64,000 nucleotides of DNA from Petrosia ficiformis (Eukaryota; Porifera; Demospongiae; Haplosclerida; Petrosiidae). The translations under genes were made by a program, and so were the position numbers. The first letter of the stretch is position 1; each line of letters starts with the position of its first letter. Positions 2,880-31,285 of this stretch are shown piece after piece. A model generated the notes under the pieces. That model was given only the letters and a program-made list of their open reading frames with translations, searched no databases and had not been told where the DNA came from. The stretch is from contig OX345639.1 of assembly GCA_947044365.1 (NCBI GenBank), positions 8,694,718 through 8,758,717 of the forward strand, read 5' to 3'.

Positions 2880-4350
2880 TCATGTTTACTTGCCAATGAT
2901 TACTCTCTTAGTGGAACTATGCAAACTTTGCCCTTTTCACCAACAGTACTGGTTTGGCACAGACAGACCCTCGCACCGTCCTGAATGGGTTGGGCATACC
3001 AGACTACAACTGGACCATAGAATAGCACTAGTCTCTTACGCTCAAGTGTATATTTTCTTGCTAAGATGTAAGAATATGTCATCGGTCATCCCAGGGAAAG
3101 TATGATTTTTCGTGTATTTCATCATTGTATATGGATAGAGTATAGTACTAAATGTGACACAATACCATGATATTGCTTTTTACCACCTCAACATCAGCCT
3201 CTTGAGTTGTCACACAGTGTTTGATTAATTCAACTTCCATTATACCTATTCAGAAGCAGTAACATAATTATATAAACCAACGTTCGTTGATACAAAATAA
3301 TTATTATTGAAGTAGCTTACCTGATCTACAACATGTTTCGGAAATTTCTTAAGCTTGTATTTGGCATTAGCAACTGAGATTAAACAGCAATATGCATCCT
3401 ATCTTCCTTTCAAGAAAACCATATATCAGGATTTTCCATTTCTTTTTCACTATAGGGATGTTTTCAGCAGTATGGATTGTTTCTACGAATTCTTTAGCTA
3501 ATCACTATGTTCAATGTCTCCAGCTTTTATGCAATCACTTCTCATTCTCATTTTACGTTTGATCTATAAGCCTATTTTATTCTATAATTATCTCATAATA
3601 GCTAATATAGCTACTTTGCACAACACTAAATATAATTCAAGTTCTTTCATTGTATATCATTTAATTACCCCCACAGTTAGCCGCTGCGCAAGAGGTTTTA
3701 AGCGATTGGTTGTGTCCGTTTGTCAGTCAGTCAGTCAGTCTAGTCTGTCATGCAAAAAAAAAAATCAGAATTGATACTTTAGAATGGGACTATCACTGTC
3801 TATCAACACTAACATTTCAACATTTATGGTAATATAAACTGTTCTATGCCAACGAGTAGGCAGTAGCTGCCGATGTGAAAGTCATGTGAAAGTCATGTGA
3901 AAATGCTTAGCCAAATCCATGTATAGAAGGAATCGACAATAATATATGATAAATCATATTACATTTGTAGCTAGATCCTGCATTTTGTACTCATGTTACC
4001 TTAATTGTGATATAAACAGGTAATTAAATCAAAGGGAATCACACAATAAATCATTATAATTATACCTTTGCAGTTTATCATGCTTACTGTGTAAGAACTT
4101 GAATTACTAGTTCACTGTAATGGGTCTCTATAGTTATACATAGAAAACAGTGGTGATTGTAAAAATTACTTGTTTTCTATGAAAACATCAAACTTCCCAT
4201 GGCCATCACAATAACCAACTCCTTTTTCATAGATTTCTTGAATTGTTTGGAAGCATCATTTAGTTGTTCTCTGCATGTAAACAGGAATAGTCATAGTTAT
4301 GTTTGCTTGATCATTCAATCAACATACGACTATTCGTCTCGCGTAGAGTG
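2880..4350 (-). pseudogene. Decayed coiled-coil Mieap-like gene (block A copy)
   Basis: This stretch aligns by eye, in order, with the intact minus-strand gene at 19666-22126. The terminal exon is matched around 2900-3245, the preceding exons around 3314-3580, a short coiled-coil exon near 4065-4085, and exon 2 near 4230-4290. Reading frames are broken. The conserved RPVLFYSPLG block survives only as a scrambled VLFYGP-like remnant, several exons are truncated, and the start-codon region (ttcccattg in the intact copy) has become ttcctgatt with an inserted inverted repeat at about 4335-4376 (gtctcgcgtag ... ctacgcgagac). It sits head-to-head with the Hsp70-like gene at 4488, the same arrangement as the intact pair. 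A pseudogene is well supported. Confidence 0.8.
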
Positions 4351-4487
4351 GGAGGGGCTGGCTACGCGAGACTACTTGCCGATTAGATTTTCCTGATTAT
4401 GTTTACAATAATTAATTATTATTAATAATTATTATTATTATGATTTTTTATATAAACGTTGACTTATGACCGACCATACGATACGAG

Positions 4488-7400
4488 ATGTGTGCGGCAA
4501 AGCCAGAAGAAAGTTCAACTGGTACTGTTTTGGAATTTAACAATATCATGCGTTTCTCCTTTGTTGCTGGGATTATGTGATTATGTTCATTATTACCTCT
4601 TTTCATTGCAGGAAGCAGAGAGTACAAGGCCCGCCGTGTAAAAAGAAGTGTTTTGAAGGAGAAGTACGGTCAAAATATTGGGAGATTTCGTGAAACGACA
4701 GGGAATGTTGCAGCCATTGATTTTGGTACAACATTTTGTTCTTTAGCATACACAACTGGAGGTGAGGAACAAAATGTTGCAAATGTAAAACTAAATGAAG
4801 TTTATTCTCGCGTTCCAACTGCTGTACTCCTTCGTCAGAAACAAGATTGTTTGGCTGGTGGTACCGATGATCCTGTAACTAAATCTGTGGCATATGAAAT
4901 TAAAAGTTTTGGATATCAAGCACAAGAGGAGCATCGTAAACTTCGCAGTCACGATCGCTCTAACTTCTTGTATTTTGAACGTTTCAAAATGAATCTTCAA
5001 CAAGATAAGGTACAGTTATATATGATTATCCAAAAATGCGTGGTGATTCTGTTGAATCATAATTAATATATAATATAATTGTAATAATATAATTATACTT
5101 ATATAATTATTATATTAGCTTTAATAGTGCCTTTAGCATAGTAGTGTAATGTGGTCATTGAAAGAATTATTATCTAGAATCATAATTGATATAATATACT
5201 ACGAACAAATGTATTATAATTTTTGTTTAATATATGAATAAACTAAATGTTACGTCTTGTGCTCTCTGTCCGAGTCTGCTCAATCTTCTCTGTACTTGCC
5301 TTCGGTGGTTTAAGCTAGGCATGTATAGTACCTTCTATTAAAGTGAAGTACACTATATACAGGCTCATTCTGTGTCTATCTCTATCATATGTTAGCCTGG
5401 CTTCTCTCTCTATATTAGTTAGTCTTCTCCGTGTTAGAAATGTCATCATCTTTTTATACTCCCACTGGACAACTTAATGCTGATCTTTCATTGCCATCTC
5501 GGAGGTTTTCAACTTCATTCCTTTTTTTTTTCTCTATTAATTAATCATAAAACATTTCTCTATAATTATTATTTTCCACTTCTCCATTTTGTGCGACAAA
5601 CTATCTTCATACCTTTCTTGTTTGATTCTTCTTTCTCTTAAAAGTATCTTTTTTTTGCCTACTGAAGGCTAGAATGCTTCCAATTCTCATTGAACAGACA
5701 GCTAAACAATAGACAGCAGATTAAAATAGACAGAGAGACATTTGCAAAATTGTAGGAAGCACGGGGTCATGGCCCCCGGACTTTTAATTAAAAATTCTTC
5801 CACAAAATGGCAGGAAAACACTTTGCTGTGAGACGATATGAGAAGATAAAACAGCGTAGCAAGAATTGGTTTTTCAGATCGCAGATGTAGAGCACCATGT
5901 ATGTTAGTTTGTTGTTCTTTTTTTCCAAGAACGAGAAAAAATATATATATATATATATATAATTATATATATATATATATATATAGGCCTATATATATAA
6001 TATATATATATATTATTATTATTATTTATTATATATATATATTATGTATATACAGGCCAGCCAACAGGACTCGTGGGGCCTGGGGCAAACTTTCAAAATA
6101 GGGCCCCATTCAATTTATTTTGCAAACTGGTTTTAATAACTAAAAATTTGGCTTAGTTGGGGGCCCCTTATAGTGTGGGGTCCAGGGCAAAATGCCCCAC
6201 CTGCCCCCCTGTGTATATATATATAATATATTATATAATTATATATATTATATATCAATTTATTGCATATAGGGTGTCAATAGAAATATGGTGATCAAAG
6301 CATCAAATGGGACAGAATACTACCTCGTGGAGGTGATTGCATTCATTCTGTGTTATTTAAAAGAAGTATTAAAGAAACATCTAGCTCAACCATTACCTGG
6401 AAATGATACCAAGCAGCTAACAACAGATGATTTTGATTGGGTTATTACTGTACCTGCTATATGGAAATCAAGGGGAAAACTAATGATGAGGGAAGCTGCG
6501 TACATGGTATATATATATAATTATGATTAATTATGGATATAACTAGCGAAATGCAATGCATTGTGGGGGTGAGCCTGGTTGATAACCAAGTTGGAACGAA
6601 CAATGGACCCTCAGATCCAAAACAAATCACTACCAAAAAGCACCAAGTTTACTACACTAAATGGGCCTATACCATATTCTTTACACCCATAAATCACAGT
6701 GCATATATTATAAATTGTGGTGCAATGTATCATAATTATGTCACAGTAAAATTGTTTTGAAGTCATGACATATTTAATTTTAAGCAGCTAGGTCTAAACA
6801 TGCAAAAATAATAATGAGTTTATAATGGTTTTACACATGTGCAGGCAGGACTGTGTTCAAATGAAAACACTATTGACTGCTTCATTAAAGTTGGCAGAGG
6901 TTTGCCTCGTCCAAAGGAGAACAACCCAGATAGGCTCTCACTAGCATTAGAGCCAGAAGCAGCAGCGATTTTTTGTCAATCATTGCAGTTACAAAATATC
7001 CAGCCACATTGTAATATATCCGGGTCTCTAAGATCTAATCGTTATGTTGTGATAGATATTGGTGGTGGTACAGTTGATATTACTGCTCATCGTCATGAGC
7101 AAGGTATGGGTATTGAGGTTATTTCAGAGCCAGTTGGTAATGACTGTGGAGGAATGAAAGTGAACAATGAATTTTCAAAGCTTCTACAAAAGATACTTCA
7201 AGATGAATCATCCGATCCTAATAATACAATCAGTTTTCCAAGATATCTACAAACAGACAATGACCCTTCAACATTGGCATTACGACATGCTGTTATCAAC
7301 TCCTTACTACACAATGAATTTGAGATGCAAAAGGTATCCTTTGGAAGCAATGCAAAGGGAACAGAACCTTTAAGTCAAGCAGATGAACAAGAAGAAGCTG

Positions 7401-8263
7401 AGAAAGAAGTATGCATAAAACTTCCATTTGAATTGACTGACTTTTATGGTTTAGACAAAATCGAAGAAGGTGTGGAAGCTCTTCAAGATGACCGCATTCA
7501 GCTTGAGGAGGATGTGCTATACATCAAATACTCTAAAATGCGAGAAATTTTCCAATCTGCTGTGGATGGAATACTTAGTTGTATTGCATCGCTTCTAGAA
7601 CGAATGCGAGGAGAAATTGACACAATCTATCTTGTTGGAGGTTTCGGAGGATCCACTTATATATACCAGAAAATTTCCTCATTGAACAAGAGTATGTTTG
7701 AAGAGAATAATATTCGAATCATAGTCCCGAAAGACCATTCTCTAGCAGTATCTCAGGGAGCAGTTATGTATCGTTTGAATCCTGATATAATTCATTCTAG
7801 AGTTATGGATGCATCATATGGTGCTAATATTTCTGCACCATTTATACCAGGTCGTCATAGCTACAAGTATTTCATCGGAATAGATTCAGATGGTTCTCTT
7901 CAGCGCCGTGACGTGTTTCTTTATTATGTGGAAAAGGGAGAAGTCATATCCAGTGATGAAGTAGTAACAGGTGAATTAATCCCTCTCAGTAATGCTGCTG
8001 AAAAAATGAAAATAGATCTATATAGCACTTATGATAAAGACGTAGAGTATATCAAGGATGAAGATGAAAAGCCAATTCCGTCTATCCGAAAAATTGGAGA
8101 GATTGAAGTTGACATGCCAAATGAAGATGGCTTGCCTCGAGAGCGTCGTGTAGTTGAGCTGACAATGGACTTTAGTCATACTGAAATACAAGTTCGTGCT
8201 CGTTACACTGTTAACAATACTGAAGTAAAAGCAACAATTGATTTTCTAACTGATCATACATAA
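4488..8263 (+). CDS. HSPA12-like Hsp70-family protein, copy A
   Basis: Exons 4488-4521, 4612-5009, 6273-6506 and 6845-8263 join in phase to give 694 residues, close to the usual HSPA12A/B length. The N-terminal exon has the phosphate-1 loop AAIDFGTTFCSLAYT, exon 3 carries DFDWVITVPAIW, and exon 4 has the phosphate-2 loop VVIDIGGGTVDITAH, then NDCGGMKVNNEF, and the adenosine motif IYLVGGFGG. These are the ATP-binding signatures of the actin/Hsp70 fold, and the GGG.VN.EF spacing is of the divergent HSPA12 type, not canonical Hsp70. There is no EEVD-type tail and no signal peptide, so it is probably cytosolic. Intron 2 is swollen to 1.26 kb by AT repeats and other repeats. The first 34-base exon is odd: in copy B the matching region is continuous coding sequence, so here an intron seems to have replaced it. 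Client and function are unknown. Confidence 0.88.
5010..6272 (+). repeat. Repeat-filled intron of Hsp70-like copy A
   Basis: The paralogous intron in copy B is 116 bases, while here it is about 1263. It holds no coding sequence. It contains a long (AT)n tract at roughly 5940-6050, a stretch at about 6055-6215 rich in ggggcc/ggcccc blocks that looks like part of a dispersed element, and a second AT tract next to the acceptor. Confidence 0.7.
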
Positions 8264-8678
8264 TTTAACTTTTGAACTGTTTGATTAGTGAAATATTTAA
8301 ATATATAATGAATGCACACTTGCAGTGCAGAACCCTCTCGCCACAAGTGTGAATGGGAAACAAGAACAATTACTGACAAAAAAAAACAGACTATACTTGA
8401 CGATAATAATAAGTATTGTACTGAGACTGTGTGTGTGTGTGTGTGTGTGTGTGTTTACACTGCAAAAAAAAAAAAAAAAAAACATGCATGAAATTAAATA
8501 GGTGCTTGGGTGGAGCTAGAAAGTGACATTGTCGTAGCAGCCACTAGTTGATATCAAGCTGTGATTCGACAGCGATAGCCTTCAAACAAGATGAGTTGCG
8601 TTTTCATGCACTCGTTTGATCTGACTAGATGTCTTCTGAAAGTGGTGAAACGAAGACTGTGAGTCACAAATATTGTAA
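8264..8678. repeat. 3' flank of Hsp70-like A with (GT)n
   Basis: No gene seen. It contains a (GT)n microsatellite at about 8428-8454 followed by an A-rich run at about 8465-8480. Weak similarity of the later flank (about 9420-9560) to the flank of copy B (about 25845-26085) shows that the A/B duplication continued past the gene and was later split by insertions. Confidence 0.6.
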
Positions 8679-9148
8679 TAGTCTCGCGAGCCAGACTCCT
8701 CCCCTTTTTTAGAAGATGGCGAGTGAAAGTGTTTGTTATTAAAAAAACTGTTATTGTTACTCTTTTGTCTTTTTAAAACTATACCTATGACGTTCCTGGA
8801 TTTAAAAAAAAAACGATCATAAATTGTGAGGAATGGAGAGACTTCCCAAATCTGGTCTGTAGGCAAGAGAGTGCATCAATTCCTGTGAAAAGCCAGCTAC
8901 TGCTTCTTTCCGCCTCATCTTTGAAGTAACTCCAAAGTCTTAGTAAAATCATGTATCATTTGTTCATTAGCTATTTTTAGTCAGATTAGAAAATAATATC
9001 GATATTCAAAGTTTACATGTGGTCTGATTTTTATACCAACACCTGTGGCCAAATTCCTTAGCTGGGACAGAAAAGTCAACTCGATTGACCAGACTCCCTC
9101 CCCGGTGTCCGATCTCAAAAAGAGGAGGAGTCTGGCTTGCGAGACTAT
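8679..9148. mobile_element. MITE with TAGTCTCGCGAGCCAGACTC termini
   Basis: The left end tagtctcgcgagccagactc is matched in inverse orientation by the right end gagtctggcttgcgagacta. The 8-base sequence tattgtaa flanks it on both sides (8671-8678 and 9149-9156), as expected of a target-site duplication of a hAT-like element. About 470 bases, no transposase frame. A related end (tagtctcgcg) occurs at 10080, and a related inverted repeat lies at about 4335-4376. Confidence 0.75.
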
Positions 9149-9227
9149 TATTGTAATAACTTAAGTAATGCAATGTGGCTACAGAAATTCCCATGTTTTG
9201 TTTGTTTTGTCCTGAAGCTGGTAGTAC

Positions 9228-9281
9228 TAGTCTGGATACCCGCCCCTTCGCTTGGAAGCGAAGGGGCGGGTATCCAGACTA
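9228..9281. mobile_element. 54-bp perfect palindrome with 8-bp target-site duplication
   Basis: Two 26-base arms (beginning tagtctggatacccgc) are perfect inverted repeats separated only by gg. The 8-base direct repeat ggtagtac flanks them at 9220-9227 and 9282-9289. It looks like an insertion consisting of almost nothing but termini. Confidence 0.75.
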
Positions 9282-9850: not shown

Positions 9851-10016
9851 ATATAGTATGCTAATAGGTCCTATATACTGAATACAGAACCCTTGTTTTC
9901 TGTCCTCAGATGTGATATAGCCCTCGCAGGCTCGGGCTATATGATGCCTATATCACATCCTCGGACACAAACTCTGGTCCTATATTTTGTATATAGGACC
10001 TATTAGCATACTATAT
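9851..10016. mobile_element. Foldback element
   Basis: The arms atatagtatgctaataggtc (9851-) and its reverse complement ending at about 10016 enclose a second, nested inverted repeat (gatgtgatatag ... ctatatcacatc) around the centre ccctcgcaggctcggg. No coding sequence. It belongs with the foldbacks at 10729, 21135, 22304 and 23610. Confidence 0.7.
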
Positions 10017-10188: not shown

Positions 10189-12420
10189 ATGGACGAGATT
10201 CCTAAGTTCCCAACGCCAAATTCCTCTAGGAAAGGAAAAATGGAAGAAAACTCAAAAGAGAGAAAGAGAAAGTAAACTATCAGAGAGAAGGGTACGAAAA
10301 AGAACCGCAGAAGGCTACAGAAGAACATAATGCAAACCTAAACAAACTTCACCAAGGAGAGGTTGTGTGAGAAGGTTGGGCACATGCACAGTATTTACCT
10401 AGTTGTCTTATAGAAACCAAACCAAAAATTAAAGAACAAAATAAGGAACGTAACGAATGTCATAGTTGTTAGATTTTAAGAGTAAATCATCAAGTCGATC
10501 ACGATACACAAAGACAATCATGACATAAAGAAAAATATATCCCGATATGGCGAAACATCAAAGTAAACCACAGGTTTATATATAAGATATAGCACCCTGC
10601 GGTCAGATATAGCACCTGCCGTCGAAACAGACTACAAGAAAACAATGCTTACCTTCTCCAAAGTGCCGACAAAAAGGTAGGAGAAGCATCAAACATCAAC
10701 AAATGTTTTGTCTTTCGTGATATATATTGGTTATATCACAGCCACTCATGCTATATCAGATTTATAAAAACCTCGCCCTCAGGCTCAGTTTTTATAAATC
10801 CGATATAGCACTCGTGCTGTGATATAACCTATACATAAACTAGTAAACAAAAAAAAAGGGAGAATATAAAAACAAACTAACCGTATAATGATACGGTTAG
10901 TTTGTTTATTCTCCCTTTTTTCTGTCTTCTGTTTTTTTCTGTTTTCTGGTGGACTATGGGATTGTTGTTGTTGAGGGGGCACTTTTGGCTCTATATGTTT
11001 GATAGCTGAACATTTGTTATCACTGTCCTGTTTCGCTTTTCTTGTATTTAATTTAGCCAACAAAAGAGAAGTTATATATATATATCATTCATATGATATC
11101 AATGAATGTGCACATATTGTAACTTTATTTACCATTTATTCTTTGTCAGGTATAACATTAACATCGTTATTACTTTGTCCACTTTATTCAGGTAGTATTT
11201 GACAAGTGTAAAGAGATTGTACTAAAGAAAATGAAATTGCGTTTTTTGAATTCAGGATAACCATGAAGTTATAAAAGCCACGCAACTTCTTAAACCAATG
11301 TGCAAATAAAGTACCAGCAAAAGAGGTACATCATGTGATATGTACTTACTTAAATGACAATATCCTTCTAGTACCTCCAGCTATTGTCAGCCTAAACGAT
11401 ATCAGGAAAAATGGCAGGACAAGCGAACTACCTATTGGAAAGAAGATTCTGAAATATCTTTAATTTACTTTCGTCCTGTTTTGTTCTTCAGTGCACTTGG
11501 CCATATTGAATGTAAAGGAGAAGTTGGAAACACAATATCTAGACATAAAGAATTACAATGCACTCAAGGTTGAAAAACTACTTCTACACTGTAAGATAAT
11601 TTATTGTTACACATCTAATTTCAAAAGGCACAAGGCACAACTCCTGTTCACTTATCTCTTTATACATGTCTCCCACCTCCAAATTAAAAGATAAATTTGC
11701 ATGGTTCCAATTAAAAGAACAAATCAGCTTTTCATATCTCAGTGCCTCCAACTAGACATTACTCATTTCAGAGTAACATTTATAATCTTCAGTATTTTTA
11801 TGATATTTTCAAAGAAAAATGAATAACATATTCATTCAGTTATTCAGTACAGCTTGTCCTGGTTGAAAGTTTAGCCTTCTTTCTGGCAGGTACACTGACA
11901 TCAGTATCACTAACTGTAATACAGTTTACACTACTAGCTATAGACTCACTACTAGAGGCTTTACTAGATACCGAACTACTAGTAAAGAACGCTTCCATAT
12001 TATCAGTCGAAGCACATTAGTGTAAATTTCCATAATCAATATTCGTTGTAATAATTTCATATAAATACAGACAAATCCGTGTAGTTGCAGGCACTGATAT
12101 CTTCTATAAATACTAATAGAAAGAACCATTATTATAGTATATACACTAGTTTGATGCTGCCTCACTAATTAATACTATACTATTCAAACTTAGGTCCAAT
12201 GAATATTTATAACCGTAACTAATTCTGATGATGAGCTTCTCAAATCATTCAATTTACAAGACAAAGAGTAAGACAATGAATTATATTATTTGTATTCTTG
12301 TAAAAAAAAGTATACATCCATTTTGTAATAGTAAAAAAATCTTATTGCTTCATCTCCTTTTTATAGCAGGTGCTCTCACATAGTACACTAAAACAATAAA
12401 AGATAGTGAAGCCCAGTATT
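10189..12420 (+). pseudogene. Decayed copy of the coiled-coil/Mieap-like gene of pair C
   Basis: Segments match, in order, the gene at 28945-31285: the KEREK-type coiled coil at 10189-10520, the exon reading FDKCKEIV...K near 11193-11320, the PPAIV..KRYQEKW..KRTTYWKED block near 11375-11560, and the last-exon end (agcccagtattcatgatgaa) near 12410. Frames are broken by stops and deletions. A stretch around 10860-11035 is inverted relative to the parent: the IKHIEPKVP segment reads on the minus strand. A foldback element sits in it at 10729. No Hsp70-like partner remains upstream. Confidence 0.75.
10729..10829. mobile_element. Foldback element inside the decayed gene
   Basis: The arms ggttatatcacagc and gctgtgatataacc are perfect inverse copies. 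Inner arms (atttataaaaac / gtttttataaat) surround the centre ctcgccctcaggct. The same centre recurs in the foldback at 21135-21245. Confidence 0.65.
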
Positions 12421-12652
12421 CATGATGAAAACTAACTGGTATTTTTTATATATTTGAAATTGTTTTGATCTAATAAACTAGTACACATAAAATTAAGAAT
12501 GTGATTATAATCATTATAATTATTATATGTCTAGATATCACAACTACTACAGTATATATATATATATATACCTGTATAGTAATTATACTTTACACTGTGC
12601 ACTCGTGATAAGACAATAAACCATCTAACATTAAAGAGATACATACTTATTA

Positions 12653-13857: not shown

Positions 13858-13953
<96 letters not shown>

Positions 13954-18789: not shown

Positions 18790-19295
18790 CAACATGATGG
18801 TGCCTTTTCACTCCACCTGTAGCCCTTTTAGTGTGATTTATTTTGCTACCCACAATTCCTTTGTGTCCTATATGGCCTAATGCACTATAAAATAAGACAG
18901 GTTGATAGTAGGACATATGCATGATGGTGCCTCATCACTCCAAGCACTAGATCTTCTTTCTTGATTGTGGGTGACATATAAAACCAGGAAAGACCAGTGT
19001 CACTATCTTAAGTTTCCAAGCTAAATCTACTGCCTGAATGAATTCACATTTAATACATCTTCAAATCACACACACACACTGTTTACATAGAAACATTGTA
19101 ATAATTATGTTATGTAGTATAAATATACGCCTATGCAGTGTCAACTCTCAACTTTTTTTTAAAGTGAGGTTTACTTGACTTTGCATTACTAATATGAAGT
19201 AAGCAGCTTCCCACCAGTCTTGTCATCATCAAATTGACCTAAGTGAAAGATCCTTTCAAGTTTCCTGGTTTCTATCAGGGAACTATTCTGATACA
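18790..19295 (-). pseudogene. Decayed block-B copy of the gene at 1-2614
   Basis: 18830-19030 matches exon 4 of the left-edge gene (minus-strand reading ACPTIYFQPVLFYSALGHIG in the parent), and 19140-19290 matches its exon 3. Deletions and frame breaks are plain, for example loss of most of the segment before the LAW motif. Its position, directly 3' of the intact coiled-coil gene at 19666-22126, mirrors block A, where the corresponding gene is intact and its neighbour is ruined. Confidence 0.75.
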
Positions 19296-19665: not shown

Positions 19666-22126
19666 TTAGTTTATTTTGCTCTCTTTGACCTTTACATTTT
19701 TGGTGTGCATTTTCTTACTGCTTGCTCCTGTACTTTTATCGGGAAGATTATTAGCATCAGTTTTGGCAGTTTTAGTTTGTGAAGGGAACTTGATGTCTGG
19801 TTCCTTTACAAGCTTGGAACTAGTGGTTTCGATATGTGAATGACATTGTAAATTGTCTTTATTTTGTTCATTCATTTTAGATTTACAGACTATGCGAGCC
19901 TCACCCTTTTGACCGATAGTACCCAGTGGACTATAGAATAGCACTGGTCTCATATGTTCAAATTCACACTGTTCTAGCGGTAACAACTCATCCTTTTCCC
20001 CTGATATTTCATGTGTTTCTTCACTGTATGTAGGTAGATTATCAAATGTTATTGGTGGGGACAGCAACACCATCTTCCATGATAGCTCAGTGATTCTTTT
20101 TACCACACATTTAACATCAGCCTCTTGAGTTGTTACATAGCATTGGATAAATTCAGCTTCCATTACCTATGCAAAGTATACACCAACCTTTGAAAACTAA
20201 CAAAATTTTATGATATAATATATATATTAAGTAGCTATACTACCTGATTTACAACACATTCCGGAAGTGACTGAAGCTTGTGGTTGGCATTAGCAACTGA
20301 CATTAAACAGGAATATGCATCCTGTCTTCCTTTCCAAGGAAACCGTATGTCAGGATTTTCCATTTCTTCTTTAGTAAAAGGACGTTTTGGAGCAGTATGG
20401 AGTGTCTCAAGCTCTTCTATGGCTTTACTCATAATTTCTTTTGAACAACACTTATAAGCATACTGTAGTAATGTTGATACACATACAGTTTATAACACGT
20501 ACTTCATTTATTTCTACTTGCCTCAAAAAGTTCTGTCAGGAACTTAGCTCTTTCCAGATGCGTAGTAATATTCAACTTAGAAAGAAGCTGCCTCTCTTTA
20601 TAAACTTGGCTAAATTCTTTAGCTACATCACTATGTTCAATGTCTCCAACTCTTTTGCAGTCACTTCTCATTCTCATTTCACGTGTTTGATCTGTAAGTC
20701 TATATATATAAAATTATATGTAATTATAATGATCACTAGCTAAATATAATATTAAAAGTTATAATTATAGTTCTATGATAGAAGTTCCATCATACTTGTA
20801 CATCAATAAGATTCTTACTTTCTTAGTCTCTGTATTTCTTCCTGATATTGCTTGTTCTCTCTATTTTATGAATGGAAAATTGAATGGGCTCTTGCTATTC
20901 ATAATGATGTGTAACATTATCCCTTTCAATTATACATAACTTGCAAATGTTGATTTAAAAAATAAATTCACTTATGGAATAAGGTAATGTACATGCATGC
21001 ATGGAAAGGGATATGATGAAGCCACCCTTCATAGCTTCAGACAATGCTTTAAATGTGATATATGTATCGTGGTTTGATACATACATTGGGTGGTTTGTTG
21101 CTATATAAACATGACTTCATGAAATCACGAAATATATTAGTTATGTCATGCCCATTTGTGCAATATCAGGCTTATAATCACCTTGCCCTCAGACTTGGTG
21201 ATTACAAACCTGATATAGCACTCGTGGCATGACATAACCTATACATATATATAATTATGTATGTATGCATGCAGAGTTACATATATTATAATTACAGAGG
21301 TATAACTCAGAACTTACGCATTTTGACGTAGTAACATTCCCTTTATTTCATGCTTATGTTGCCTTAAATGTTAAACAAACAATGATAGAAGTAATCACCA
21401 TTATAATAAATCATATTACTTTTGTAGTTCCTGTATTGTGTGGTCATGTTGCTTTTGTAGTTCCTGTATTGTGTGGTCATGTTGCCTTAAATGTTAAAGA
21501 AACAATTATAGAAGGAATATAAATCATATATATGTATTACTTTTGCAATTCCCATATTTTTTCTTCTTTTTGCCTTAAATGTAATATAAATAATTGCATG
21601 TATAGACGGAATCACACAATAAACCATATTATATACCTTTGCAGTTTAGTAAGCTTATCTTTATACTGTTTTTTTCTAATGTTAAAAAAAGCTTAATGTG
21701 TGCAATACAGTTATTTTAAAAATCCCTTACATTTCTTCATAATTACTATTTTTTTCCTTCTCAAGCTCTGTAGACTTCCTATTGAATTGTGAATAGTGAT
21801 GTTGGTCATGAATACATGTATGTTCCATACTGTTTAAGAATTTGAATATCTCGATCCCTGTATGTGGTTTAAAAGTTCACTATAAAAAATACATAATAGG
21901 AACAGTGGTGATTATGATTACTTGTTTTCCATGAAAGCATCGAATTTCTCATCAATAACCTTACTGGTCCTTGTCAACTCCTCTTTTATAGATTTCTTGA
22001 ATTGTTTGGAAGCATCATTTAGTTGTTCTCTGCATGTAAACAGGAATAGTCATAGTTATATTTGCTTGACCATTGTCAATCAACATACGACGATTCCTCT
22101 CCTTCTCTGCTAATTAGATTTCCCAT
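19666..22126 (-). CDS. Coiled-coil protein with Mieap-C-like domain (block B, intact)
   Basis: Eleven exons, all in phase, encode 434 residues: 22126-22089, 22029-21922, 21778-21731, 21675-21637, 21573-21541, 21485-21420, 21362-21318, 20860-20819, 20699-20522, 20450-20244, 20166-19666. Residues about 1-130 are a charged coiled coil built from very small exons. The 66-base exon is a perfect internal duplication of an 11-residue unit QHDHTIQELQK. The rest matches the core of the left-edge gene: helices, then ITELSWKMVLLSPPITF and MRPVLFYSPLGTIGQKGEA, which I compare to the Mieap C-terminal domain. It ends in a polar, lysine/serine-rich tail with no further domain. The exon 9 donor is gcaagt, a GC-AG intron. 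It is divergent from Hsp70-like copy B, with 354 bases between start codons. Mieap proteins act in mitochondrial quality control, but whether that applies here is unknown. Confidence 0.75.
21135..21245. mobile_element. Foldback element in a coiled-coil gene intron
   Basis: The arms ttatgtcatgcc / ggcatgacataa and caatatcaggcttataatcac / gtgattacaaacctgatat flank the centre cttgccctcagactt. It lies in the intron between exons 20860-20819 and 21362-21318. Confidence 0.65.
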
Positions 22127-22480
22127 TGAGATACTGCAGGTTGCTGCCAACAGCTAGTCTAGTCGCCTGACTATAATAATTATAATTTATTGCTGATCAT
22201 GTGACCTGTGATAGATATAAATAGTTATTGCACACTTTGCTCACCTCTACTAACGAAGCTGCTTCAACAACAGTGGTAGTTCACCAGATCGTCAATAAAT
22301 CACTTAGAACACACTTGACAGTGCATCGTGTGTTTCAATGTAGCACTTGGGCGGTCAATAAAGGTCGAGTTTATTGACCCGCCCGGGCCCTCGTGCTACA
22401 TTAAAACACGTAATCACGGTAAAGTGTGTTCTAACTATTACTTATTATAGACAACAGCATTGACGCAGATACGATACGAG
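22127..22480. promoter_or_regulatory. Bidirectional promoter region of pair B, with foldback insertion
   Basis: This is the 354 bases between the divergent ATGs at 22126 (minus) and 22481 (plus). Most of its right half, 22304-22434, is a foldback element: outer arms ttagaacacactt / aagtgtgttctaa, inner arms caatgtagcac / gtgctacatt, and cggtcaataaa / tttattgaccg. The promoter role is inferred from position. Confidence 0.6.
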
Positions 22481-23064
22481 ATGTGTGCGGCAAAGCCCGA
22501 AGAAAGTTCAACAGATTCAGATGGTCCATTATCACTTCTTCCTTTGTTGCTGGGATTAGGTGATGGTTCATTGTTACCTCTTCTAACTGCAGGCCGCAGA
22601 GAGCAAAAGGCCAGCCGTGTAAAAAGAAGTGCTTTGAAGGAGAAGTACGGTCAAGATATTGGACGATTTTGTGAAACGACAGGGAATGTTGCAGCCATTG
22701 ATTTTGGTACAACATTTTGTTCTTTAGCATACACAACTGGATCTGAGGAACAAAATGTTGGAAATGTAAAACTAAATGAAGTTTATTCTCGCGTTCCAAC
22801 TGCTGTACTCCTTCGTCAGAAACAAGATTGCTCGGTTGACGATACCGATGATCCTGTAACTAAATCTGTGGCATATGAAATTAAAGCTTTTGGATATCAA
22901 GCACAAGAGGAGCATCGTAAACTTCGCAGTCATGATCGCTCAAAGTGCTTGTATTTTGAACGTTTTAAAATGAATCTTCAACAAGACCAGGTATAGTTAT
23001 GATTATCAAATTGCATATACTGACTTCTTGAATTATGTATAATTATAATTATAATTATTACATA

Positions 23065-23109
<45 letters not shown>

Positions 23110-23564
23110 GTCAATAGAAATATGGTGATCAAAGCATCAAATGGGACAGAATACTACCTCGTGGAGGTGATTGCATTCATTCTGTGTTATTTAAAAGAAG
23201 TATTAAAGAAATATCTAGCTCAACCATTACATGGAAATGATACCATGCAGCTAACAACAGATGATTTTGATTGGGTTATTACTGTACCTGCTATATGGAA
23301 ATCAAGGGGAAAACTAATGATGAGGGAAGCTGCATATATGGTATGTATGATGATTATAATCGCACGTATAGTTTTAACTAGCAAAATTCAAAGCATTGTG
23401 GGGGCGAGCCTGGTTGTTACTCAGTGGGAGTTGAAGTGTACAAACAAAACAACTAGCAAAAACTAAACAAAAGATAACTGAGCTAGAGTCAAACCAGTGA
23501 CCCTTGGCTCCAAAGTGTACAAACAAATTTGAATAGCTAAATGGGGCTTGCTCAGGCTCACTCC

Positions 23565-23610
<46 letters not shown>

Positions 23611-25547
23611 GTTATACCGACCCCTGCGAGGTATATATCACATTTATACTCACCAATCCTAAGGGCGAGGTAAATATAAACGTGGTATAATATATTTATC
23701 CATGATGGAACCACGCTTCTGCCCATGCTCAGCGACATTGCACACACATTGTAGATCTCTATTTGCTATGTTGAGCAAGAAAGAGAACGATGATCACAAC
23801 CGATTGGTTTGAAGACTACAATAGCAGAAACCCACGCGATCCTTTTCCTAGTGAAATTTTAACTCCTACTTGTTCTAAGGAAGTTCTCAACAAGTGGCTC
23901 TGTGTTTTCATCAATGAAACGCACAGCAGGACAGTGTTAACCACAAGCAGGGAGTATATCAAACATCCAGGTTAAATTTACAACCCTATCAGTTATATAT
24001 ACCAACCAGTTCCAACAAATATAAATATATAAATATATATAATATGTATCATCTGATTGTGTAATTATATATTTAATTGTATGTGAATAATTGTATCTAC
24101 ACAATTAGTTAATAATGCTTTTACACAGGCAGGACTGTGCTCAAATGAAAACACTATTGACTGCTTCATTAAAGTTGGCAGAGGTTTGCCTCGTCCAAAG
24201 GAGAACAACCCAGATAGGCTCTCACTAGCATTAGAGCCAGAAGCAGCAGCGATTTTTTGTCAATCATTGCAATCACAAAATATCCAGCCACATTGTAATA
24301 TATCCGGGTCTCTAAGATCTAATCGTTATGTTGTGATAGATATTGGTGGTGGTACAGTTGATATTACTGCTCATCGTCATGAGCAAGGTATGGGTATTGA
24401 GGTTATTTCAGAGCCAGTTGGTAATGACTGTGGAGGAATGAAAGTGAACAATGAATTTTCAAAGCTTCTACAAAAGATACTTCAAGATGAATCATCCGAT
24501 CCTAATAATACAATCAGTTTTCCAAGATATCTACAAACAGACAATGACCCTTCAACATTGGCATTACGACATGCTGTTATCAACTCCTTACTACACAATG
24601 AATTTGAGATGCAAAAGGTATCCTTTGGAAGCAATGCAAAGGGAACAGAACCTTTAAGTCAAGCAGATGAACAAGAAGAAGCTGAGAAAGAAGTATGCAT
24701 AAAACTTCCATTTGAATTGACTGACTTTTATGGTTTAGACAAAATCGAAGAAGGTGTGGAAGCTCTTCAAGATGACCGCATTCAGCTTGAGGAGGATGTG
24801 CTATACATCAAATACTCTAAAATGCGAGAAATTTTCCAATCTGCTGTGGATGGAATACTTAGTTGTATTGCATCGCTTCTAGAACGAATGCGAGGAGAAA
24901 TTGACACAATCTATCTTGTTGGAGGTTTCGGAGGATGCACTTATATATACCAGAAAATTTCCTCATTGAACAAGAGTATGTTTGAAGAGAATAATATTCG
25001 AATCATAGTTCCGAAAGACCATTCTCTAGCAGTATCTCAGGGAGCAGTTATGTATCGTTTGAATCCTGATATAATTCATTCTAGAGTTATGGATGCATCA
25101 TATGGTACTGATATTTGTGCAACATTTATACCAGGCCTTCATAGCTACAAGTATTTCATCGGAATAGATTCAGATGGTTCTCTTCAGCGCCGTGACGTGT
25201 TTTTTTATTATGTGGAAAAGGGAGAAGTCATATCCAGTGATGAAGTAGTAACAGGTGAATTAATCCCTCTCAGTAATGCTGCTGAAAAAATGAAAATAGA
25301 TCTATATAGCACTTATGATAAAGACGTAGAGTATATCAAGGATGAAGATGAAAAGCCAATTCCGTCTATCCGAAAAATTGGAGAGATTGAAGTTGACATG
25401 CCAAATGAAGATGGCTTGCCTCGAGAGCGTCGTGTAGTTGAGCTGACAATGGACTTTAGTCATACTGAAATACAAGTTCGTGCTCGTTACACTGTTAACA
25501 ATACTGAAGTAAAAGCAACAATTGATTTTCTAACTGATCATGCATAA
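22481..25547 (+). CDS. HSPA12-like Hsp70-family protein, copy B
   Basis: Exons 22481-22990, 23107-23340 and 24129-25547 give 720 residues. It has the same signatures as copy A: AAIDFGTTFCSLAYT (phosphate 1), DFDWVITVPAIW, VVIDIGGGTVDITAH (phosphate 2) and IYLVGGFGG (adenosine). Exon 1 is longer than in copy A and encodes a leucine/glycine-rich segment (SLLPLLLGLGDGSLLPLL) that copy A splices out or lost. The large last exon differs from copy A at only about a dozen of 1419 positions by eye, far less than the introns and flanks, and about half of those differences fall in one 35-base patch after MDASYG. The start is the ATG in a context shared with copy A (cgagATGtgtgcggcaaag). It is probably a cytosolic ATPase chaperone relative. 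Confidence 0.9.
23341..24128 (+). mobile_element. Intron 2 of copy B with MITE and foldback
   Basis: 23398-23570 has inverted ends gggggcgagcctgg / gctcaggctcactcc, the same family as sequence at 6567 in copy A and 42490-42640. An (AT)n tract follows at about 23568-23605, then a foldback at about 23610-23695 (gttatacc ... ggtataat) with centre cctaagggcgagg. Confidence 0.6.
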
Positions 25548-26705
25548 TTCTGTGAGATTTGTAAAAATATTTATAATTAACCATGTGACAGCGGATGTAA
25601 TATCACTGTACAATTTTTTTGGACAGTTTATTATAGAACTTTCTGTTCTTTCTTCTTGCCTTTATTAGTTTTTTTGTGTCAAAAAAAAGAACAAATTTGC
25701 TGATGTGACATACCTACTGAAATAATTCATTCAGTTTGGTTGTGTATGTGTGTTCGGAATAGCCAAAACTAAAAATGAATGTTGAAAATTTTATTTAAGA
25801 CATTTGGTTTGAAAGTTATGTTTTCTGTTGACAAAATTTGTACATGTACACCAATTGCAACCAGCAAGCACTCCTCTAAAAATAAGAAGTGCAGTGCAAC
25901 TTATGTATACAATAAGTATTTTATTATTAATGAATGCCATGCTGCACAGAACCCATGCCACCGTACATGGCATTATAATATAATATATATATTATGTCAA
26001 GTGAATATTTCAAATCAGAAACAATAATCTTTAATTAATTTGTACTATATATCTACTGTGCCATGATTCTGTAAAGCACAGATGTATATCACTGTAACTG
26101 CATAGTTAAATGGCACTAGAGCAGTCTGTTAGTCAACTAGTCAGTTAAAAATGGAATAGTTGATGACAATTCTTGTGTATTGACTGGTCATAATTATATT
26201 GCACATGCATATTTCAGCTTCATTGCCACATAATATGGATGAAGCTACGTCCAGATAGTCTGTTCTTTCAGTGATAAGTATATATTAAAGGAAACAGCAT
26301 GCAAGTCTAGGAAGTTATGTGACAATCTGTTTGCATATTATAGTGCAACAATGATACTGAATTGTAAACGACTAGTTGACTAGTTGCTTAAACCCCATGA
26401 CCATTAATTGATTAGAGCAAACCCCTAGTCATTCAAGCCCTAAATTGCTCTCAAGATTTTCCACACTATTAATTAGTTTACTTTGCTATTTAGTTTAGCA
26501 TGCATGATAAATCACTCTCGATGTATTTATTGATTTGTACTCCAGATGATATGATTAGTTATACTTGGAATGTAAAGTTGACCCTAGCTCATATTAAAAA
26601 TACATAAAGGTTGATATGAATTCATAAATTTGTGAAAGTAACACACTATTGATTTCATAATATATAATAATTATGCAGTTTTAAATTCATATGCGTAGCA
26701 ACAGA
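25548..26705. other. Intergenic between convergent Hsp70-like genes B and C
   Basis: No gene seen. 25845-26085 retains similarity to 9420-9560, marking the far end of the A/B duplication. Confidence 0.55.
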
Positions 26706-28886
26706 TCAGCTCAGAAAGTCTAATGTGGTATGAACATCAGTGCCAGTATTCTGATACTTTACAGCTGCAAAGATTTCAGCAGAACTAAAATCTAGGATTA
26801 CAGTAAACACACGCTGGTCCTTGTGAAGAATGTCGCCATGAGGGAGTTCAAAACAGAGTTCACCCACTTTATGAGCAAGAGGAATTATATCTGGAGTGCG
26901 ATAGTCATTTAGATAGTCAAGAGATGCTTCTTCACTGCAATAAAATGGAATACGCACCACCTTCTCTTTATCAAAATCAGGAAGAATATCAAATACTGCT
27001 ATCTCATTCATAATTACAGGGTCACCTTTACAAACAAAGGTTAAAAAGGAATCACCACAAACTTCATCTCCATCCTCATTATAGCAGAAATGCTCTTTGT
27101 TGTGTACAGAAGGGTCATATTTCACAGAAACAGCAATACCATATGTCCGATTCATCAAACGAGATCGAATAATTGGTTTCTTTCTGTATCGAACTGCTCC
27201 ATGCGCAATTGCCAGCTTATGATCCTCAGGAACAATTACTCTGAATTTTACATCTGGAAATTCAGTGTGAACAAGATTCTCGATATGTGAATAAACATAC
27301 TTACATCCCCCAAACCCTCCTACAAGGTAAATGGTATTAAGATCTCTTAATCGAAGAGTTAAATGAGAAAGGGATGATCTGGTACACTCTAGAATACCCG
27401 ACAAGGCTGGTTGAAATAACTCCTTAACTTTTGAAAAGTTAATGTACAATGTGTCTTCTTCAATCTCAATTCGAGAATCAGCCAGCTTTTCTACATTTTG
27501 CTGTAGAACATGTAAACCACCACACGTTTTAACAATTTTATCAGGCAGTTTTATAACTATTTCACGTTCATCATCAGTATCTTTGCACGAGCACTGTGCA
27601 CCAAAAATCTCTTTTTGTGTTTCAAATTCAGTATACAATAGGACATTCAAGTAAGGCTTTAGAGCTTTTCCATCTTGTCCACCTAATAACTTTGGAAATG
27701 TATTGTCGAAATTTGATACAATTTGGGTCTCTGTCTCACCAAGAATTTTCTGTAAAAGCTTTGTGAACTCTCGATTTACCATCATACCTCCACAATCATT
27801 TCCCTCGGGATTTTGAATCACATCTATTTTACCTGTCTCATAATCTAACTTCTGTGCTGTAATATCAACTGTGCCTCCTCCAACATCAACTACTACATAC
27901 TGTTCAGCAGTAATATTTACTTCCTTTGAACGAGCTTTGCTATGTTCAGCAAGGTTTTCACATTTCATATTCTGGCAATAAAGAGCTGCTGCCTCTGGTT
28001 CAGGAACTAAAGATAAATTGGGTGATAACGTTTGAATTGGATACTGTACTCCCACATGTGTATATGAAAGGTGGCGAATTCTATTTTGCTCATTACATAA
28101 CCCAGCCTAAACATAATTAAGAGAATATCACATACACAATATATTATAATATTCAGGTTCTTACCATGTTTCCAGCTTCTCTCATCATTCCTTTTCCACG
28201 TGCCTGCCAGATGGCTGGCACAGTAATGACCCAATCAAAGTCAGTTGCCTTAAGATATGTTCCAGTTTTAGAAGACACATATTCACATTTTGAAAGATGG
28301 GTTTCCAGTTCATCTTTCAAGTACTGAAGAATGAGTGCAATTACTTCAATTAGAAACCACTCAGAGCCATCATCTGCTTTTAATTTCATGCAACGATCAA
28401 CTTTCTGTGTATTTAATCACAATAATAATAATTATTATATGCCAACAGCCACTGAAGATAATTTTATGTTACCTGATCATGTTGTAAGTTCATCTTCATT
28501 CTCTCAAAGTAGAGGACTTTATCTCTGTTAGAAGCTCGAATTGTTTGGTAATTCTTTTGAGCAAAATATCCAAAGGAATTAACTGAAACACCTATATGCT
28601 TATCATCAGTATCCTTCCCTTTGTACAGCAAAATGGCAGTCGGTACTCTTGCGTGGTATTCATTAAGTTTAAGTGAATTAATATCATCAGTATCTTCTGT
28701 TGTATACGCAATAGAGCAATATGTAGTCCCAAAATCGATGGCAGCAATATTTCCATTTATCTTTACTTTTGTTGCTTCTGCTCTATTTATGGTGACAGAA
28801 AATGCATCCTTTTTTTTAATTTTTGCTCGCAGTGGCCAACCAGTAGTCTCGGCTAAACGTAGACCATGACTGTAAACAGTTGCCAT
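26706..28886 (-). CDS. HSPA12-like Hsp70-family protein, copy C
   Basis: Exons 28886-28473, 28404-28165 and 28106-26706 encode 684 residues, with the same two intron positions as copies A and B. Motifs: AAIDFGTTYCSIAYT (phosphate 1), DFDWVITVPAIW, YVVVDVGGGTVDITAQ (phosphate 2), NDCGGMMVNREF and IYLVGGFGG (adenosine). It is clearly diverged from A and B in sequence, so it is an older paralogue. The C-terminal third (QRVFTVILDFSSAEIFAAV, ending in LDFLS) is the small beta-rich region that stands in for the substrate-binding domain in this family. Its start lies 58 bases from that of the divergent coiled-coil gene. No signal peptide, so probably cytosolic. Confidence 0.9.
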
Positions 28887-28944
28887 TTCGTACGTTGTGA
28901 TCTTCTCGAGCTCATAACCCCGCCCTTAAACAAAACCCGGAAAA
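28887..28944. promoter_or_regulatory. 58-bp bidirectional promoter of pair C
   Basis: Only 58 bases separate the divergent ATGs at 28886 (minus) and 28945 (plus). They include a GC-box-like accccgccc and cttctcgagc, one mismatch from a TTCnnGAA heat-shock half-pair. Both 5' UTRs and the core promoters must share or overlap this space, or transcription must start inside the neighbour. The regulatory reading is inference. Confidence 0.6.
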
Positions 28945-31285
28945 ATGGCATCAGATGACGAGGTTTCTTTCTTGAACAATCTTTTAGTTATCCCAACAAT
29001 TAGCAGTTCATTGTACAAATTCCTCAAACTAGTAAAGGAAAAATGGACTGAAGAAGAAAATGAAAAAAGAGAGAAAGAGAAACTCAACTATCAGAAAGAA
29101 CTCGAAGAATGGTATGAAAAAGAACTGCAGAAGGCTACACTCGAACATAATGCAAACCTAAAGAAACTTCAGGAGAATTTGCGTGAGCAGGATGCAAAAA
29201 TAGAGTATTTAACTAGTTGTCTTAAAGAATCCAAACAAAAAATTAAAGAACAAAAGAACAAATATCATAGTTGTTCTATGCATATGCATACTGATAGAGT
29301 GAATCATCAAGTTAATCATGATAGACAAAGACAGTCGCGACATAAAGAACAAGAGAAGCACCGAGATATGTCATGTTCTCAGGGGTGGGATAATAAATTT
29401 TCAGCTATCAAACATTTAGAGCCAGAAGTGCCCTCTCAGGAACAACAATCACATAGTCCATCAAGAAACACATCGGAACCAATGATACAGTTAGTTTGTT
29501 TTTATATTCTTCCTTTTTTTCTGTTTACTAGTTTATTGTTTCTTGTATTTAATTTAGCCAACAAAAGAAAAGTTCTTCTCTTGATAGCAGAAGGTTGTAC
29601 GGTGTAATAAGACCTGGTAACATCACTCATGAAGATATTCAGAGTCGCTTTAGTACTTACTTCACAAAATACAGACGTCAGTATGGGTCACAACTTGTCT
29701 CAAATTGTGGTATTAAGCAATCAATGCCCTGTATAGTTATGCAGGTACCATTCAAGTATATATATCATTTATATGTTGTGGCTTTGTGTACCATTCATTC
29801 TTTGTCAGGTATAACATGACATCATTATTACTTAATTTGTCCACTCTATCCAGCTAGCATTTGACAAATGTAAAGAGATTGTGCTAGAGAAAATGAAATT
29901 TTGTCTTTTGAAACAAGATAACCATGAAGTTATAAAAGCCATACAACTTCTTAACCAATGTGCAAATGAAGTACCAGCAAAAGAGGTACATCATGTGATA
30001 TGTACTTACTTAAATGACAATATCCTTCTAGAGATTGGAATCCCATTTATCTGATGAATTGGAAGTGTTAATTAAGGAGCCAGAGAAAAAAACAGATGAA
30101 TTAAAGTTTTGGGATGAGAGAAAGTGTGCATTTGCATTGCTACTTAGCTGTATTGTTATTTATAATAAGAATGTGCATCGTACAGTGAAATGTCATGTAA
30201 GCTATAATTCTGATATGTAATCATCTAGCTTAACCACTTATACACAGATACTGCGGATACTAACAAAAAGGAACAATATCAACTATTCCAAAGAAATGGC
30301 TGAAGAAGCTGCTAAAATTTCCCTTGATATGATTACACTTGTGCCTCCAGCTATTGTCTGTCAGCCAAAACAGTATCAGGAAGAATGGCAGGACAAGCGA
30401 ACTACCTATTGGAAAGAAGATTCTGAAATACCTTTAATTTACTTTCGTCCTGTTTTGTTTTTCAGTGCACTTGGCCATATTGGATGTAAAGGAGAAGTTG
30501 GAAACACAATACCTAGAGATAAAGCAGTACAATGCACTCAAGGTTGAATAAACTATTTCTATACTGTAATATAATTTATTGTTACATATCTGATTTCATT
30601 AGGCACAAATTCTACTCATCAATTTCACTGTCCCCCACCTCCAAATGGAAGGTAATTATGTATGCTTCCCATAATTGAAATGAAAAGAACATGCAGATGA
30701 GCTTTCATGTATATTATAATTACCAGTAGAAGGAACTTTCAATAGGCTGTACTAGTTTGATATTGCCTCACTTCTTTAATCTCATACTTAGGTCCAATGA
30801 AGCAACCACTCCAGCAGGTGGGTTAGTTTGTATAGTTAATTCCAATGTAAATGTTTTGTATAATTATTGCAGGTACTCTGCAATGTTTTAGTTTTATTAT
30901 CATTGAGCATTAATTGGGATTTTGTTTTTTCTACAGGTCATCAACAGGAATGTTACAGTCTAAAACCTCAAAGTTTGTTCATGGAATATTTTTCATTCTT
31001 TACTTTTATTTAATATTCTGGGTATCATTCATTTTTTATAATCGTTATAATTATTGTGGTATAATAGCTAATTCTCTTTTTTCAGATGAAGGACTTATCA
31101 ATTCACCAGACAAACAGTAAGACAATATATTAAAATTATATTCTCTTATTACAACATTTTCAACTCCTTATTATAGCACTCAGAAGACCTGCAGCAAGTG
31201 CTCCCACATTTCACTCTGCCAAACACACGAAGGACAGAATATCTGTGAAAGTTGTATAAAGATACTTAAAGCCCAGTATTCATGA
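28945..31285 (+). CDS. Coiled-coil/Mieap-C-like protein with Cys-rich C-terminus (pair C)
   Basis: Ten phase-compatible exons give 524 residues: 28945-29489, 29558-29744, 29854-29985, 30032-30196, 30248-30542, 30603-30651, 30792-30817, 30937-30972, 31086-31116, 31177-31285. Exon 1 has a strong coiled coil (about residues 25-125; EKWTEEENEKREKEKLNYQK), then a His/Gln-rich linker. Exons 2-5 match the core of the left-edge gene exon for exon (IRPGNITHED...; AFDKCKEIV; DMITLVPPAIVCQPKQY; YFRPVLFFSALGHIGCKGE). The last exon ends in a zinc-binding-like pattern, TCSKC-x5-C-x8-CESC, absent from the paralogues. It is divergent from Hsp70-like gene C. The Mieap-C assignment is by motif resemblance only. 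A degenerate copy lies at 10189-12420. Confidence 0.72.

What the first reader, a model, noticed from the sequence alone, without database searches (positions are those of the whole stretch)
2880..31285. Repeated head-to-head pairing of an HSPA12-like gene with a Mieap-C-like coiled-coil gene
The same divergent pair occurs three times: 4350/4488 (partner ruined), 22126/22481 and 28886/28945. In pair C the start codons are 58 bases apart. Pair C differs strongly in sequence from A and B, so the arrangement has outlived much sequence change. That suggests co-regulation and possibly joint function, for example a chaperone-type ATPase with a mitochondrial quality-control-like partner. No such gene pair is known to me.
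Basis: partly seen in the sequence, partly recalled or inferred. Interest (0 to 1): 0.85.

Follow-up and report, generated by a model that had tools for sequence, protein, structure and literature searches.

The report
Paired chaperone-like and Mieap-like sponge genes
In this sponge-like genome a chaperone-type ATPase gene and a coiled-coil gene related to a mitochondria-linked scaffold protein sit back to back again and again, and both families were found only in the same few places, which points to a two-gene unit of unknown but possibly defence or cell-death function.

Summary
Pairs B (start codons 354 bp apart) and C (58 bp) are head-to-head; pair A is decayed. In this genome every HSPA12-like match (19 of 19, 25 of 25) and every above-chance Mieap-core match lies in the same four places: C4 (window), C5, C6, C14. 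On C4, C6 and C14, 10 of 16 HSPA12-like genes face a Mieap-like gene or remnant; on C5 the families are only neighbours. Divergence of the partners tracks (r = 0.975, seven pairs), so the unit duplicated as a pair and kept its arrangement across 61-85% amino-acid difference. The partners are distant MIEAP (PF16026) relatives, mostly below its cut-off; an Amphimedon relative passes it. A mitochondrial role is not shown. Mieap-type cores are joined to a Death domain (in-frame splice), probably to kinases, and to CD225 in Amphimedon. Best reading: a co-regulated ATPase/scaffold module, perhaps a cell-death or defence switch. Expression, binding and gene order in other sponges were not testable. 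Head-to-head genes are common in Amphimedon, so co-localisation and co-duplication, not orientation, carry the case; block-duplication inertia is the main rival.

The parts
4488..8263 (+). HSPA12/Hsp70-like gene of pair A (first exon apparently interrupted near 4578; last exon open)
2723..4340 (-). Decayed Mieap-like partner of pair A (remnants of a gene-B-type copy)
   Evidence: blastn to 19681-22101 at 70-89%; read
1524..2707 (-). Gene D: further Mieap-like core, downstream of the pair A partner on the same strand
   Evidence: ORFs; Pfam MIEAP E=0.17, 12.3 bits for 1524-1871, nothing for 2342-2707; matches Amphimedon P0004 at 45-46%
22481..25547 (+). HSPA12/Hsp70-like gene of pair B (three exons modelled)
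   Evidence: Pfam HSP70 22.8 bits against cut-off 20.6 on the spliced protein
19666..22126 (-). Mieap-like coiled-coil gene of pair B (12 exons modelled)
   Evidence: exon model; Pfam MIEAP E=1e-4, 22.8 bits, below the cut-off of 27
22127..22480 (.). 354 bp between the start codons of pair B; holds a long palindrome at about 22335-22400 seen by eye
26706..28886 (-). HSPA12/Hsp70-like gene of pair C (three exons modelled)
   Evidence: Pfam HSP70 28.2 bits against cut-off 20.6 on the spliced protein
28945..31285 (+). Mieap-like coiled-coil gene of pair C; exons to 30817 modelled, possible C4 zinc-finger tail exon at about 31187-31285 not joined with certainty
   Evidence: core 40% identical to Amphimedon P0001
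28887..28944 (.). 58 bp between the start codons of pair C
18826..19290 (-). Degraded gene-D-like copy downstream of the pair B partner
   Evidence: 73-79% DNA identity to 1586-2185
10217..12483 (+). Degraded, partly inverted copy of the pair C Mieap-like gene without a nearby match to HSPA12-C
   Evidence: core piece at C4:8706096-8706299

Best explanation
A two-gene module. Shown: an HSPA12/Hsp70-like ATPase gene and a coiled-coil gene with a Mieap-type C-terminal core are arranged head to head on three contigs (C4, C6, C14) and are close neighbours on a fourth (C5); copies duplicated together as a unit and kept company while both diverged strongly. Inferred: the short shared 5' region drives both genes together; the ATPase acts as a nucleotide-dependent switch or chaperone on its coiled-coil partner; the partner self-assembles as a scaffold through its coil and core and passes a signal through exchangeable parts (Death domain, protein kinase, CD225 membrane domain, zinc finger). 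Most likely this serves stress- or infection-triggered signalling or cell death rather than mitochondrial repair as such. Likelihood by step: co-duplicated, retained unit 0.9; shared regulation 0.7; physical or pathway partnership 0.55; defence or cell-death role 0.35.
For: Co-localisation of the two families: (all matches but chance-level ones and three CD225-only matches on C8); chance that four Mieap-family groups touch 0.12% of the genome about 2e-12 if they were independent, which they probably are not. Head-to-head with a Mieap-like gene or remnant in 10 of 16 HSPA12-like genes (hand count, totalled). Mirrored divergence r=0.975, 5 of 5040 label permutations as high. Similar synonymous divergence of partners, with M6_1 standing in for its close copies: H6_2/H6_3 0.72 and M6_1/M6_6 0.53; H6_2/H6_9 0.63 and M6_1/M6_12 0.57; H6_3/H6_6 0.003 and M6_6/M6_11 0.010. 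A Death-domain ORF joined to a Mieap core by a GT-AG intron with the frame kept, in two copies (Pfam Death for one of them). Kinase ORFs next downstream of three C6 cores on the same strand. CD225 plus MIEAP in Amphimedon P0002/P0004.
Against: The mirrored trees and the shared places could come from a few block duplications and linkage inertia; much of the correlation is cluster structure. Six of 16 HSPA12-like genes lack such a partner, many Mieap-like genes on C6 are unpaired, C5 has no head-to-head pair of the two families, and HSPA12-A kept an open last exon though its partner decayed. Head-to-head genes within 1 kb are common in Amphimedon: 11,379 of 40,122 genes (passages of PMC4773876). 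No expression, interaction or structure evidence. The C14 core matches no Pfam family; profile comparison with the C5 MIEAP sequence is weak.
Confidence: 0.55

Rival explanations
1. Linkage inertia: one ancestral neighbouring pair was copied as a block by tandem and segmental duplication, and the arrangement persists only because the genome is compact and rearranges slowly; no joint function.
For: Near-identical blocks on C6 at offsets of about 45.5 kb and 63.6 kb; head-to-head genes frequent in Amphimedon; unpaired copies exist (hand count).
Against: The head-to-head pairing is found on three contigs with 61-85% amino-acid difference between contigs, while D copies, insertions and remnants around the pairs have turned over, so neighbours do get lost.
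Confidence: 0.35
2. Mitochondrial quality control: the partner works like vertebrate Mieap/SPATA18 with an ATPase helper.
For: Sequence relation of the core to MIEAP and two phase-0 introns at about the same core positions as in the C5 MIEAP gene.
Against: The one clear MIEAP gene is separate, on C5. The window partners fall below the MIEAP cut-off, and relatives carry Death, probable kinase or CD225 parts.
Confidence: 0.12
3. The pairing is a chance or annotation artefact of coiled-coil similarity.
For: Coiled coils give spurious matches; several single Pfam hits are weak.
Against: The relation rests on the non-coil core: profile comparison of C6 cores with C4-type and Amphimedon cores 96% probability, E 2.7e-9; Amphimedon relative over the MIEAP cut-off; shared intron positions.
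Confidence: 0.03

Closest known systems
MIEAP / SPATA18 (Pfam PF16026)
   Same: Coiled coil followed by a core of about 200 residues with a PP motif and an LF.S..G motif; two phase-0 introns at about the same positions as the C5 MIEAP gene
   Different: Most members score below the PF16026 cut-off; they vary in attached domains; they are clustered with HSPA12-like genes
   Same: Hsp70-type nucleotide-binding region over the Pfam cut-off in genes B and C
   Different: Distant from the C5 copies (27-32% identity over the longer matches, 28-44% over short pieces); multiplied in clusters with Mieap-like partners
Death/TRADD-N lineage-specific expansions in Amphimedon and bivalves (Kaur et al. 2021, PMC8195603; section 10 and search passages read)
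   Same: Sponge gene families joining Death-like domains to variable parts such as protein kinases; HSP70 domains in some Crassostrea virginica versions
   Different: The main text has 0 occurrences of Mieap and of head-to-head or paired; a TRADD-N domain was not shown here
Head-to-head paired plant NLR genes such as RPS4/RRS1 (recalled)
   Same: Divergent pair duplicated as a unit and fast-evolving
   Different: No NLR parts in the pair; no receptor function shown

Membership tests
MIEAP (PF16026) | Score over the curated cut-off of 27 bits | tested here: not met
   Gene B 22.8, gene D 12.3, gene C none; C14 none; C6 2 of 6 members at E<1, best 0.0011. Met by the C5 gene (85.4 bits) and by Amphimedon P0004 (33.6 bits); not met by the other 9 relatives scanned (P0001 and P0002; P0005, P0007-P0010, P0012, P0013)
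MIEAP (PF16026) | Homology of the core by profile and gene structure | tested here: met
   Only Pfam family at E<1 for gene B; Amphimedon relatives match the same profile end; two phase-0 introns. Profile comparison with the single C5 sequence was weak: 20% and 0.5% probability
MIEAP (PF16026) | Mitochondrial condensate function | not testable with these tools
   Needs localisation
Hsp70 (PF00012) | Score over the curated cut-off of 20.6 bits | tested here: met
   Spliced B 22.8, C 28.2; C5 copy 18.3, not met; the last exons alone do not reach it
HSPA12 branch | Match to a branch-specific model or tree with HSPA12A/B | not tested
Hsp70 (PF00012) | Canonical substrate-binding domain | tested here: inconclusive
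   Best Pfam stretches lie within profile positions 3-235 of 599
Co-regulated bidirectional gene pair | Divergent start sites within 1 kb | tested here: met
   58, 325, 325 and 354 bp between predicted start codons in four pairs; other pairs bounded only by ORF ends, and H6_9 is over 2 kb from its partner's first core exon
Co-regulated bidirectional gene pair | Correlated expression | not testable with these tools
   No RNA data

The most novel reading that the evidence does not exclude
A previously undescribed animal two-gene defence or cell-death system: an Hsp70-family ATPase sensor or switch and a Mieap-type scaffold with swappable effector domains, inherited as a head-to-head cassette and multiplied in sponges.
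Probability: 0.3. Interest if true: 0.88.

Novelty: new variant of a known kind. Interest (0 to 1): 0.66.

Why it matters
The physiological partners of HSPA12-type Hsp70s and of Mieap are poorly known (recalled). Genomic co-localisation and co-duplication in what is probably an early-branching animal names a candidate partner for each and makes the question directly testable by co-expression and binding. The Death, probable kinase and CD225 attachments would place Mieap-type cores in animal cell-death or immune wiring.

Tried and rejected
Structure: a model of Amphimedon P0001 alone was poor (pLDDT 45); with 22 sequences the mean was 65.8, with parts of the core helices at 75-83, but Foldseek against PDB gave no match at E 0.001 or better, so no fold is claimed. 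Sequence search of PDB gave nothing useful for the C5 MIEAP core (best E 0.53), the B last exon (none), the C5 HSPA12-like exon (an Hsp70 at E 0.07) or the full C protein (none). Protein search with the gene B core returned no homologue at E 0.01. A Death-HSPA12 fusion at C6:7455680-7457303 was considered and dropped: the Death frame there ends early and no joining splice was seen. The Mieap tree is poorly resolved (2 of 11 inner branches starred) with long branches M14 and M5 meeting, so no rooting is claimed. Off-cluster Mieap hits were chance level: C4:5584788 E=0.35, C15:4290736 E=1.2; three C8 hits match only the CD225 part of P0004. Genome searches score only the best candidates, and members of one cluster barely find those of another (C14 to C4 E=0.17), so a divergent Mieap-like gene in a fifth place could have escaped. 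Nine paper searches were answered; several lists were capped (for example 20 of 43, 10 of 352) and were judged by titles and abstract starts. None listed a paper recognisably on this pairing. Two listed papers hold both protein names: PMC11036304 (passages read) and PMC12729601 (listing only).
Full report
What is there. The window is C4:8694718-8758717 of a 191,215,263-base genome in 29 contigs. Pairs B and C are head-to-head as described, with 354 and 58 bp between predicted start codons. The Mieap-like gene of pair C has seven modelled exons with AG/GT at the intron borders. That of pair B has twelve, with AG acceptors and GT donors except one GC donor after exon 10. In one search exon 7 was cut at the first of two identical 33-base repeats, so that model is 33 bases short, in frame and outside the core (seen). 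Pair A is decayed on the Mieap side and apparently also at the HSPA12 first exon.

What the two families are. The spliced HSPA12-like proteins of B and C pass the Pfam HSP70 cut-off (22.8 and 28.2 bits against 20.6); a C5 copy does not (18.3), nor do the last exons alone. The sequences show the phosphate and adenosine motifs of Hsp70-type ATPases (motif names recalled; sequences). The label HSPA12 was not tested by a branch-specific model. The partner proteins have an N-terminal coiled coil and a core whose best Pfam relation is MIEAP: gene B E=1e-4 (22.8 bits, cut-off 27), gene D 0.17, gene C none. Amphimedon relatives are stronger: P0002 3e-4 and P0004 5.1e-8, 33.6 bits, the only one of ten scanned relatives over the cut-off. 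C6 members: 2 of 6 match MIEAP at E<1, best 0.0011; C6 profiles against the profile of C4 and Amphimedon cores give 96% probability, E 2.7e-9. Against: the C14 core matches no Pfam family, and profile comparison with the single C5 MIEAP sequence is weak (20% and 0.5%). Genes B, C and the C5 MIEAP gene share two phase-0 introns at about the same places in the core, within a few alignment columns; gene C has one more.

Genome-wide test. HSPA12-like searches gave 19 of 19 matches at E<=1e-5 (query B) and 25 of 25 at E<=0.01 (query C5) in four places only: the C4 window, C5:75-80 kb, C6:7.357-7.466 Mb, C14:5.756-5.763 Mb. Mieap-family searches: PF16026 finds C5:88341-89058 and one chance-level hit; a C6 query 35 of 35 in C6:7348529-7481678; a gene C query 8 of 10 in the window, one weak on C14 (E 0.40) and one at chance level elsewhere on C4; a C14 query itself and one window match at chance level; the gene B core 6 of 6 in the window; P0004 seven of 11 in the window, one on C14 (E 0.011), and three on C8 that match only its CD225 part. 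The C14 core was recognised by a local profile search (E 2e-6). Counts are lower bounds, since the tool scores only the best candidates. HSPA12 clusters with 10 kb flanks cover 0.12% of the genome; four Mieap-family groups touching them would have a chance of about 2e-12 if independent. They are probably not independent, since block duplication is likely, and the C6 Mieap-like array runs on some 14 kb past the last HSPA12-like gene.

Orientation. Of 16 HSPA12-like genes counted by hand, 10 have a Mieap-like gene or remnant as divergent upstream neighbour: A (remnant), B and C; H6_1, H6_2, H6_3, H6_5, H6_6 and H6_9 on C6 (a RecQ-like fragment lies between H6_9 and its partner); and H14_1 (only totals these labels). 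H6_1 has its last exon split over two frames. Exceptions: H6_4 and H6_7 (first exon not found), H6_8 (a truncated Death ORF upstream), H14_2 (none recognised), H5_1 and H5_2 (divergent to each other; the C5 MIEAP gene lies 6 kb beyond H5_2, with minus-strand sequence that looks like other genes between, by eye). Counting recent copies once and leaving out C5 and the two fragments, 6 of 8 lineages are paired. Start-to-start gaps are known for four pairs (58, 325, 325, 354 bp). For H6_1, H6_2 and H6_5 the partner's start was not found; the nearest coil ORFs lie about 0.9-1 kb away, and the space between was not searched for further genes. Divergent neighbours with start sites within 1 kb involve 11,379 of 40,122 genes in Amphimedon (passages), so orientation alone is weak evidence.

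Co-duplication. Over seven pairs the distance matrices of HSPA12-like last exons and Mieap cores correlate with r=0.975; 5 of 5040 permutations reach this (M6_1 stood in for M6_8, which is identical to it over the exons compared). Much of it comes from the cluster structure. Synonymous divergences are similar in partners, with M6_1 standing in for M6_2: H6_2/H6_3 0.72 against M6_1/M6_6 0.53; H6_2/H6_9 0.63 against M6_1/M6_12 0.57; H6_2/H6_5 0.066 against M6_1/M6_2 0.11; H6_3/H6_6 0.003 against M6_6/M6_11 0.010 (two exons on the Mieap side; B/C is saturated). dN is below dS in the older comparisons of both families (0.26 against 0.72; 0.27 against 0.53), so both stay under constraint, the Mieap-like side less so. 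In trees, B groups with Amphimedon P0005 (97/99 support) and the C6 copies form one clade in both families; the C4 HSPA12 clade has 89/91. Amphimedon P0005 is one gene model whose sequence runs from B-type into stretches like P0004 and P0002 (by eye). In the window a B-type and then a D-type copy lie on the same strand beside HSPA12 A and B. This hints that the tandem arrangement is older than the species split, but it is weak: gene C matches the same part of P0004 as well as D does, and no HSPA12 neighbour in Amphimedon was seen.

Attached domains. In C6 an ORF with a Death domain (Pfam 2.1e-6) splices with a GT-AG intron and an open frame into the Mieap core; a second copy does the same, but its first Death exon is frame-broken and it was not scanned by Pfam. 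Protein-kinase ORFs (best Pfam E 6e-21 to 3e-29; three scanned) lie next downstream of three C6 cores on the same strand; a short exon-like stretch lies between in the two cases read by eye. This fusion is probable, not shown. Amphimedon P0002 and P0004 carry CD225. Gene C may end in a C4 zinc-finger exon. Kaur et al. 2021 (PMC8195603, section 10 and search passages) describe Amphimedon proteins with Death-like and TRADD-N domains and variable parts including kinases, and HSP70 domains in Crassostrea virginica versions; the word Mieap does not occur in the main text. In vertebrates Mieap forms mitochondrial condensates, a propensity that the authors say is possibly set by its C-terminal hydrophobic region (passages of PMC10845071).

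Conclusion. The arrangement is real, recurs in this genome and has outlasted much sequence change. A shared promoter and a joint function are the most economical reading, but inertia of duplicated blocks remains a serious rival (0.35). A cell-death or defence role is suggested by the attached domains only. For print: nine answered searches, some with capped lists, showed no paper recognisably on this pairing. One mussel proteomics paper lists both proteins among those changed by cadmium; the passages seen do not link them (PMC11036304).

Noticed in passing
window 6813-8265 and 24103-25549: Last exon of HSPA12-A and -B is 98.5% identical while earlier matched stretches are 86-91% and the partner remnants 70-89%: likely gene conversion.
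   Followed up: partly
window 22335-22400: Long palindrome in the pair B gap, read by eye, MITE-like; a similar palindromic stretch near L018:2480-2575.
   Followed up: no
C6:7410365-7413892 and C6:7346627-7350280: Death-domain ORF spliced in frame to a Mieap-type core, two copies; the second was not scanned by Pfam.
   Followed up: partly
C6:7346-7482 kb: Recent segmental copies at offsets of about 45.5 kb and 63.6 kb; real duplication or assembly redundancy not decided.
   Followed up: partly
window 50758-51570 (-): Weak Death-domain match (Pfam E 7.6e-4, below cut-off); the neighbouring ORF 51887-52981 looks ZU5-like by recall but matched no Pfam family.
   Followed up: partly
window 32962-33345 and 37146-37457 (+): Ankyrin-repeat ORFs beyond pair C; kelch repeats at 49503-50009 (-).
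   Followed up: partly
window 55236-61627 (+): Repeated similar ORFs with transmembrane-like stretches, apparently a small tandem family by eye; the one ORF scanned (55236-55619) had no Pfam match.
   Followed up: partly
C6:7468787-7469170 (+): RecQ-helicase-like fragment (by eye) between H6_9 and its Mieap-like partner.
   Followed up: no
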